From: Pseudomonadota bacterium
GTDB lineage: Bacteria > Pseudomonadota > Gammaproteobacteria > Xanthomonadales > Xanthomonadaceae
Assembly: GCA_023391775.1 (NCBI GenBank)
Contig: JAEWAG010000366.1
Coordinates: 1 to 6,282, forward strand
Length of the DNA stretch: 6,282 bases
Reading direction: 5' to 3'
Shown here: positions 3,395 to 4,771 of the stretch, piece by piece
Layout: every line of letters starts with the position of its first letter
Numbering within the stretch: the first letter of the stretch is position 1
Made by a program: the position numbers and the translations under genes
The notes under the pieces: generated by a model
What the model saw: the letters and a program-made list of their open reading frames with translations, nothing else
Told to the model about the DNA's origin: nothing
Databases searched by the model: none

Positions 3395-4771
3395 ATGCAC
3401 GAATCCTTGAACGCCCCGCCCCCGCGCGCAGGCAGCAGCGCGGTGGACGGCGACGCACTGGGCGTGCTGCGCCAGGTGTTCGGCTACGACGCCTTCCGCG
3501 GCCAGCAGCAGGACATCATCGAGCACGTCGCCGCCGGCAACGACGCCCTGGTGCTCATGCCCACCGGCGGCGGCAAGTCGCTCTGCTACCAGGTGCCGGC
3601 ACTGCTGCGCGCGGGCACGGCCATCGTGGTTTCACCGCTGATCGCCCTGATGCAGGACCAGGTCGACGCCCTGCTCCAGTTCGGCGTGCGCGCGGCGTGC
3701 CTGAACTCCACGCTCGATGCGGCGCAGGCACGCGAGGTCGAGCGGCAGTTGCTCGAAGGCGGCCTGGACCTGCTGTACGTGGCACCGGAACGGCTGCTCA
3801 CGGGGCGCTTCCTGGGACTGCTGGAGCGGGTCACGCCCGCCCTGTTCGCCATCGACGAGGCGCACTGCGTCTCGCAGTGGGGCCATGATTTCCGCCCCGA
3901 GTACCGCGAGCTGACGGTCCTGCACGAACGCTGGCCGCAGGTGCCGCGGATCGCGCTGACCGCCACCGCCGACCCGCCCACCCGGCGCGAGATCATCGAG
4001 CGGCTGGCGCTGGAGGAAGCGCGCTGCTTCCTCAGCTCGTTCGACCGGCCCAACATCCGCTACGCGGTCGCGCACAAGGACAACCCGCGCCGGCAGCTGC
4101 TGGATTTCCTGTCCGGCCATCGCGGCGAGAGCGGCATCGTCTACTGCCTGTCCCGGCGCAAGGTGGAGGAGACGGCCGAGTTCCTGGCCGGGCGCGGCGT
4201 CGCCGCCCTGCCCTACCACGCCGGCCTGCCGGTGGAGGTGCGCGCGGAGAACCAGCGCCGCTTCCTGCGCGAGGACGGCATCGTCATGTGCGCGACGATC
4301 GCCTTCGGCATGGGCATCGACAAACCCGATGTGCGTTTCGTCGCCCACCTGGACCTGCCCAAGTCGATCGAGGGTTATTACCAGGAAACCGGACGCGCCG
4401 GCCGCGACGGCGAACCAGCCGAGGCCTGGATGGGCTACGGCCTGGGCGACGTGGTGCTGCTGCGGCAGATGATCGAGCAGGGCGAGGCCAGCGAGGAGCG
4501 CAAGCGGCTGGAGCGGCGCAAGCTCGACCAGCTGCTGGGGTTCTGTGAGACCGCCGGCTGCCGCCGCCAGGCGCTGCTTGCGGCATTCGGGGAAACCTAT
4601 GCGTCGGCCGGCGCCGATGGCGGCTGCGGCAACTGCGACAACTGCCTGCAGCCGGTGCGCACCTGGGATGCGACCGAGGCCGCGCGCAAGGCGCTGAGCT
4701 GCGTCTACCGCACCGGCCAGCGCTTCGGCGCCTCGCACGTGATCGAGGTCCTGCGCGGCGCCGACACCTAG
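3395..4771 (+). CDS. recQ: RecQ N-terminal product: helicase core plus zinc site, ending at the premature TAG
   Basis: If translation stops at 4769-4771 the product is 458 residues. It holds all helicase motifs: motif 0 region FGYDAFRGQQQDII; Walker A PTGGGKS with the ATP-binding Lys at residue 61; VSPLIALMQDQ; DEAH at residues 154-157 followed by the RecQ-specific aromatic-rich loop CVSQWGHDFRPEY; ALTATA; motif V ATIAFGMGIDKPDVRF; and motif VI QETGRAGRDG with Gln at residue 330. Cys389, 411, 414 and 417 reproduce the four-cysteine zinc site, with a first gap about five residues longer than in E. coli. Only the first 35 or so residues of the winged helix remain. In characterised RecQ proteins the core together with the RQC region is needed for efficient unwinding, so this product would probably be an impaired helicase that may still hydrolyse ATP. 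That functional statement is inference. Confidence 0.6.
   Translation: MHESLNAPPPRAGSSAVDGDALGVLRQVFGYDAFRGQQQDIIEHVAAGNDALVLMPTGGGKSLCYQVPALLRAGTAIVVSPLIALMQDQVDALLQFGVRAACLNSTLDAAQAREVERQLLEGGLDLLYVAPERLLTGRFLGLLERVTPALFAIDEAHCVSQWGHDFRPEYRELTVLHERWPQVPRIALTATADPPTRREIIERLALEEARCFLSSFDRPNIRYAVAHKDNPRRQLLDFLSGHRGESGIVYCLSRRKVEETAEFLAGRGVAALPYHAGLPVEVRAENQRRFLREDGIVMCATIAFGMGIDKPDVRFVAHLDLPKSIEGYYQETGRAGRDGEPAEAWMGYGLGDVVLLRQMIEQGEASEERKRLERRKLDQLLGFCETAGCRRQALLAAFGETYASAGADGGCGNCDNCLQPVRTWDATEAARKALSCVYRTGQRFGASHVIEVLRGADT
4769..4771 (+). other. In-frame amber (TAG) codon inside recQ
   Basis: The codon context is GAC ACC TAG AAG GTG CGC. Flanking codons keep the RecQ frame, so this is a substitution, not an indel. 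The base after the stop is A, which is not the strongest readthrough context. The nearby lhr-like gene also ends in TAG (5272-5274 on the minus strand) at its expected C-terminus, so TAG evidently works as a stop in this genome. Confidence 0.95.

What the first reader, a model, noticed from the sequence alone, without database searches (positions are those of the whole stretch)
4769..4771. recQ carries a single in-frame amber codon while the downstream frame stays intact
The open frame from ATG 3395 encodes a canonical RecQ up to RGADT, then TAG, then KVRQF and on through complete winged-helix and HRDC sequence to a normal C-terminus. There is one lesion and no frameshift, and the downstream part remains conserved. 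This points to a very recent nonsense mutation, a base-call error, or tolerated interruption. If real, the strain makes RecQ without most of its winged helix and without HRDC, which would be expected to weaken RecF-pathway recombination.
Basis: partly seen in the sequence, partly recalled or inferred. Interest (0 to 1): 0.7.

Follow-up and report, generated by a model that had tools for sequence, protein, structure and literature searches.

The report
Private stop codon in recQ
A short contig from a Pseudoxanthomonas-like bacterium has one premature stop codon inside the DNA-repair helicase gene recQ, while another public contig encodes the same protein without the stop, so this is likely a very recent nonsense mutation (or possibly a base-calling error) that would be expected to disable the helicase; it is an ordinary kind of finding.

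Summary
In detail: recQ (ATG 3395, end TGA 5258-5260) has a single in-frame TAG at 4769-4771, without frameshift and with conserved sequence on both sides. The stop is private to this contig as far as searched. A second public contig (6,793 nt) encodes a 621-residue RecQ identical to the window at 458 of 458 residues before the stop and 162 of 162 after it, with a sense residue at the stop. 32 of 32 comparable genome loci and 119 of 119 other proteins listed in the protein search read through the site. So the lesion is extremely young, or it is an error in the contig. Without reads I cannot settle which; I lean slightly to a real segregating allele. If real, the predicted 458-residue product ends at about E. 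coli RecQ residue 444, losing about two thirds of the winged-helix (RQC) domain and all of HRDC, close to the E. coli recQ-dWH truncation described as loss-of-function in PMC5823372. I found no support for recoding, readthrough or a conserved split gene. Side result: recQ is missing or frameshifted in a minority of genomes of the same family, so its loss may be tolerated there. Ordinary; low interest.

The parts
3395..4768 (+). recQ, part before the stop: both helicase domains, zinc-binding domain and about the first third of the winged-helix (RQC) domain; 458 residues
4769..4771 (+). premature in-frame TAG
   Evidence: absent from 32 of 32 comparable loci and 119 of 119 other listed proteins
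4772..5260 (+). rest of the recQ frame: remaining winged helix and HRDC, 162 residues, then TGA 5258-5260
   Evidence: omega 0.19-0.37 against 13 loci
4775..4777 (+). first in-frame start-like codon (GTG) after the stop; no ribosome-binding site seen by eye upstream

Best explanation
The contig's recQ has a single premature TAG inside the winged-helix domain that no relative examined shares, and this is most likely a very recent nonsense allele in one strain of a Pseudoxanthomonas-like population, predicted to yield a truncated and largely inactive RecQ. Shown: the stop, the intact frame on both sides, an otherwise identical intact protein on a second contig, and the absence of the stop in the relatives examined. 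Inferred: that the base is real rather than an error, that translation ends there, and that the 458-residue product loses DNA unwinding as the E. coli recQ-dWH truncation does. Predicted effect: little cost in unstressed growth, but weaker repair and more illegitimate recombination.
For: Identical sister protein P0122 (458 of 458 and 162 of 162 residues). No other stop or frameshift in three open frames over 6.2 kb. No excess of window-unique residues at otherwise invariant columns: HrpA 3 of 579 against up to 23 in the 37 others; RecQ none against 32 others, or 2 of 387 with its three nearest relatives left out. Truncation point aligns to about E. coli residue 444, between the 413 truncation (loss of function) and the 523 truncation (helicase-competent) of PMC5823372 (passages). 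recQ is absent or broken in a minority of genomes of the same family, so its loss is plausibly tolerated.
Against: No reads were seen, so an error is not excluded. The intact twin is what an error would also leave. A second oddity on the same contig, three changed residues in a conserved HrpA motif at about 343-355, could mean local sequence errors. The 444 truncation keeps about 30 residues more than the E. coli 413 construct, so full loss of activity is extrapolated.
Confidence: 0.52

Rival explanations
1. The TAG is a base-call or assembly error in a single, perhaps low-coverage contig, and the organism's recQ is intact.
For: An otherwise identical intact protein exists; no relative examined has the stop; the HrpA motif change at 343-355 is also private (10 of 10 loci with that segment and 37 of 37 other HrpA proteins keep its first two residues).
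Against: No indels and no general excess of unique residues. A chance error gives a stop in only 2.6% of cases; the same small share applies to a random mutation, so this does not separate the two.
Confidence: 0.4
2. The stop is an old, tolerated interruption in a decaying recQ.
For: recQ is absent or broken in some genomes of the family.
Against: The sister protein shows no residue change on either side of the stop, and the downstream part is as constrained as in relatives.
Confidence: 0.03
3. The gene works as two pieces: ribosomes re-initiate at GTG 4775 and make a separate winged-helix/HRDC fragment.
For: A GTG lies one codon after the stop. Two of 66 M-starting C-terminal fragments in the database project to the same position (P0026, P0034); their DNA was not traced.
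Against: No ribosome-binding site seen by eye upstream; fragment starts are spread along the gene; no split in 32 of 32 loci.
Confidence: 0.03
4. TAG is read as an amino acid here (recoding, suppressor tRNA or programmed readthrough).
For: The frame after the stop is intact and conserved.
Against: The lhr-like gene on the same contig ends in TAG within four codons of the ends in L001 and L006; RNA folding around the stop is ordinary (z -1.19); the sister protein has a plain sense residue. No tRNA lies in the window, but the rest of the genome is not held, so a suppressor tRNA was not excluded.
Confidence: 0.02

Closest known systems
RecQ DNA helicase (TIGR01389) of Pseudoxanthomonas
   Same: Same domains in the same order, 85-90% identity to the nearest genome loci
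   Different: Interrupted by a stop at residue 459; the 32 comparable loci are open
Engineered E. coli recQ-dWH (cut at 413) and recQ-dH (cut at 523), PMC5823372 (passages)
   Same: C-terminal truncation removing HRDC and, in recQ-dWH, the winged helix
   Different: Natural or apparent stop at about residue 444, inside the winged helix; activity untested
Frameshifted recQ copies in other genomes of the family (G307, G011, G085, G021)
   Same: recQ coding sequence interrupted once
   Different: Frame change near residues 198-240, not a stop at 459; some may be assembly faults

Membership tests
RecQ helicase (TIGR01389) | Helicase core plus zinc-binding domain | tested here: met
   Pfam DEAD, Helicase_C, RecQ_Zn_bind; TIGR01389 680 bits for the first part, above its cut-off of 640
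RecQ helicase (TIGR01389) | Complete RQC winged helix and HRDC in one product | tested here: not met
   Encoded in frame but separated by TAG 4769-4771
RecQ helicase (TIGR01389) | DNA unwinding activity | not testable with these tools
   Needs biochemistry
Nonsense allele | Single stop in an otherwise intact conserved frame, intact in close relatives | tested here: met
Nonsense allele | Stop present in the organism's DNA (reads) | not testable with these tools
Recoded stop | TAG not used as an ordinary stop elsewhere on the contig | tested here: not met
   lhr-like gene ends in TAG near the ends in two relatives; one gene only
Conserved split gene | Same break recurring in relatives | tested here: not met
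   0 of 32 loci; 0 of 119 other listed proteins; fragment starts dispersed

The most novel reading that the evidence does not exclude
recQ is being repeatedly discarded in the family that holds Pseudoxanthomonas, and this contig catches one such loss at its first step: a lineage one codon away from its intact sister that has just given up RecQ.
Probability: 0.2. Interest if true: 0.35.

Novelty: new member of a known kind. Interest (0 to 1): 0.13.

Why it matters
If the allele is real, it is a natural counterpart of the engineered E. coli winged-helix truncations, paired with an otherwise identical intact sister, which would allow a clean test of what RecQ is worth outside the laboratory. If it is an error, it is a reminder that a single stop in one contig should be checked against sister contigs before a gene is called broken.

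Tried and rejected
Recoding or readthrough: no tRNA in the window, ordinary RNA folding at the stop, and the neighbouring lhr-like gene uses TAG as its own stop. A suppressor tRNA elsewhere in the genome could not be checked.

Conserved split or re-initiation: C-terminal fragments in the protein database (best 120 of 302 hits listed) start all along the gene; 2 of 66 M-starting fragments project to residue 461, and their DNA was not traced.

Generally poor contig: no excess of unique residues. The HrpA cluster at 343-355 was checked as a possible copy from elsewhere in the window; no convincing template was found.

Plasmid origin: four plasmid records match, all at 60-80% identity and none over 80% of the query. 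Promoter and terminator scan: no promoter-like site and one terminator-like site against 0.8 expected.

Structure model of the intact sister protein: mean pLDDT 68.1, used only for local secondary structure. No fold search was run.

Literature: the E. coli domain-mapping paper I recalled is not held. Searches gave the RecQ papers used; one search (nonsense mutation, metagenome, in-frame stop, recQ) gave 12 papers of which I opened one for passages (PMC6334234) and used none; search 42 on premature stops in metagenome-assembled genomes found none.

Full report
What is there. The window carries the 3' part of hrpA (1-3342, +), recQ (3395-5260, +) and the 3' part of an Lhr-like helicase gene (5272-6282, -). 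recQ is open from ATG 3395 to residue 458, has TAG at 4769-4771, and continues in the same frame for 162 residues to TGA at 5258-5260. The two parts together cover the RecQ model (TIGR01389) at positions 4-432 and 435-591 of 591. The finding is therefore correct as an observation. Its one inexact point is that the stop lies inside the winged-helix (RQC) domain: model positions 2-38 of 114 come before it and 41-112 after it.

Where it comes from. No genome is held for the window. The protein database lists the window's own 458-residue product on one contig whose length, 6,282 nt, equals the window, so the window is a whole contig. The closest named relatives are Pseudoxanthomonas: in the genome scan (33 loci) the part after the stop is 85% identical to P. 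suwonensis DSM 17175. The window aligns in one piece, hrpA to lhr, in 2 of the 11 related genomes searched, G001 and G006. That it is a metagenome contig is an inference.

The stop is private. The protein search with the first half scored 7,999 candidates and listed the best 120: the window's own product and 119 others. All 119 cover residue 459 and continue past it; two of them (P0136, P0225) end soon after, at about residues 472-474, and are probably cut by contig ends. One of the 119, P0122 (621 residues, on a 6,793-nt contig, source not shown), is identical to the window at 458 of 458 residues before the stop and 162 of 162 after it, with a sense residue in between. P0123, on a 37-kb contig, differs at 7 of 620 residues and is intact. 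Among 33 genome loci, 32 hold both halves and all 32 have one open frame across the site; the remaining locus (L033) lacks a match to the first half. In a search of 395 genomes of the same family as G001, 353 matched at E 1e-60 or better. The listing shows the best 150 places; none has an internal TAG. Twenty of the 150 have one TAA (17) or TGA (3) inside the match; in all twenty the match begins at query residue 4-9 and the open frame is 607 residues or more, which suggests a stop just upstream of the true start, but I did not inspect them one by one.

Selection and age. Nei-Gojobori estimates against 13 loci (L001-L013) give omega 0.17-0.30 before the stop and 0.19-0.37 after it. These describe long-term constraint, not evolution since the stop arose. 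The age argument rests on the otherwise identical sister protein: no residue has changed on either side, so the stop is extremely young or not real. The DNA of the sister contig could not be compared.

Real or error. I could not see reads. For a real allele: three open frames without an indel over 6.2 kb, and no excess of residues unique to the window at otherwise invariant columns. In HrpA it has 3 of 579, while the most divergent of the 37 others has 23; in RecQ it has none against 32 others, or 2 of 387 when its three nearest relatives (P0122-P0124) are left out. For an error: the intact twin, and a cluster in hrpA at about 343-355 where three of five residues of a conserved motif are changed. 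The first two of those residues are kept in all 37 other HrpA sequences and in all 10 loci that hold the segment. I put a real, very recent allele at 0.52 and an error at 0.40; this is a judgement, not a computed probability.

Consequence if real. The last residues before the stop align to about residue 444 of E. coli RecQ. A model of P0122 (mean pLDDT 68.1; 75-85 by ten-residue blocks over 421-490) places two helices of the winged helix before the stop, and the helix at 480-492 and the strands at 496-499 and 505-508 after it. In E. [quoted passage not shown] The winged helix is described as associated with duplex-DNA binding and HRDC as generally dispensable for helicase activity (PMC6773442, passages); see also PMC4464074 (passages), where deleting both from human BLM left ATPase activity but lowered unwinding efficiency. 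Complete RecQ loss in E. coli is described as not deleterious (PMC3375238, abstract). I therefore predict a mostly inactive product and a mild phenotype. Each of 11 relatives has a single RQC protein, so no backup RecQ is expected. Eight of the 11 have a near-full-length RecB match and 5 of 11 pass the RecB cut-off, so a second recombination route is likely present.

Alternatives. Recoding is unlikely: the lhr-like gene on the same contig ends in TAG within four codons of its ends in L001 and L006, no tRNA lies in the window, and the RNA around the stop folds no better than expected (z -1.19; 23 of 200 shuffles as good). Re-initiation at GTG 4775 lacks a ribosome-binding site by eye. C-terminal RecQ fragments in the database start all along the gene, with 2 of 66 M-starting ones at the equivalent place.

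Side result on recQ loss. 42 of 395 genomes had no RecQ match at E 1e-60. Twenty of these 42 were named in the listing and examined further: 18 of 20 have RecA, and 19 of 20 have no RQC domain at E 0.001, the other a partial one at a contig start. Among 12 genomes re-searched, chosen for split, weak or stop-bearing matches, four (G307, G011, G085, G021) show two neighbouring pieces of recQ in different frames, G046 a fragmented copy with a stop, G015 and G260 partial or contig-split copies, and G363 a full-length but distant (49%) match; the other four (G054, G186, G112, G395) are full length with one stop near the start. Some of these may be assembly faults or incomplete bins. Loss of recQ in this family is plausible but not proven here.

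Verdict. A correctly spotted, private stop in recQ. It is either a newborn nonsense allele or a contig error; either way it belongs to a known kind.

Noticed in passing
window 343-355 (+), hrpA: Three of five residues of a conserved HrpA motif are changed within 13 nt; its first two residues are kept in 37 of 37 other HrpA proteins and 10 of 10 loci compared. A local error or a complex mutation.
   Followed up: partly
window about 835-1242 (+), hrpA residues 279-414: Many of the 60 differences to the nearest HrpA (P0241, on the 37-kb contig) lie in this stretch, while RecQ from a contig of the same length (P0123) differs at 7 of 620 residues: a variable linker or recombination.
   Followed up: no
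P0124 (protein, 11.9-kb contig): A RecQ whose first few dozen residues differ from P0123 while the rest is nearly or fully the same: natural mosaic or assembly chimera.
   Followed up: no
P0083 (protein, 115-kb contig): C-terminal RecQ fragment with an unrelated-looking start, as after a frameshift: perhaps an independent broken recQ elsewhere.
   Followed up: no
genomes of the same family: 42 of 395 genomes had no RecQ match at E 1e-60; of 20 examined, 19 lack an RQC domain while 18 keep RecA.
   Followed up: partly
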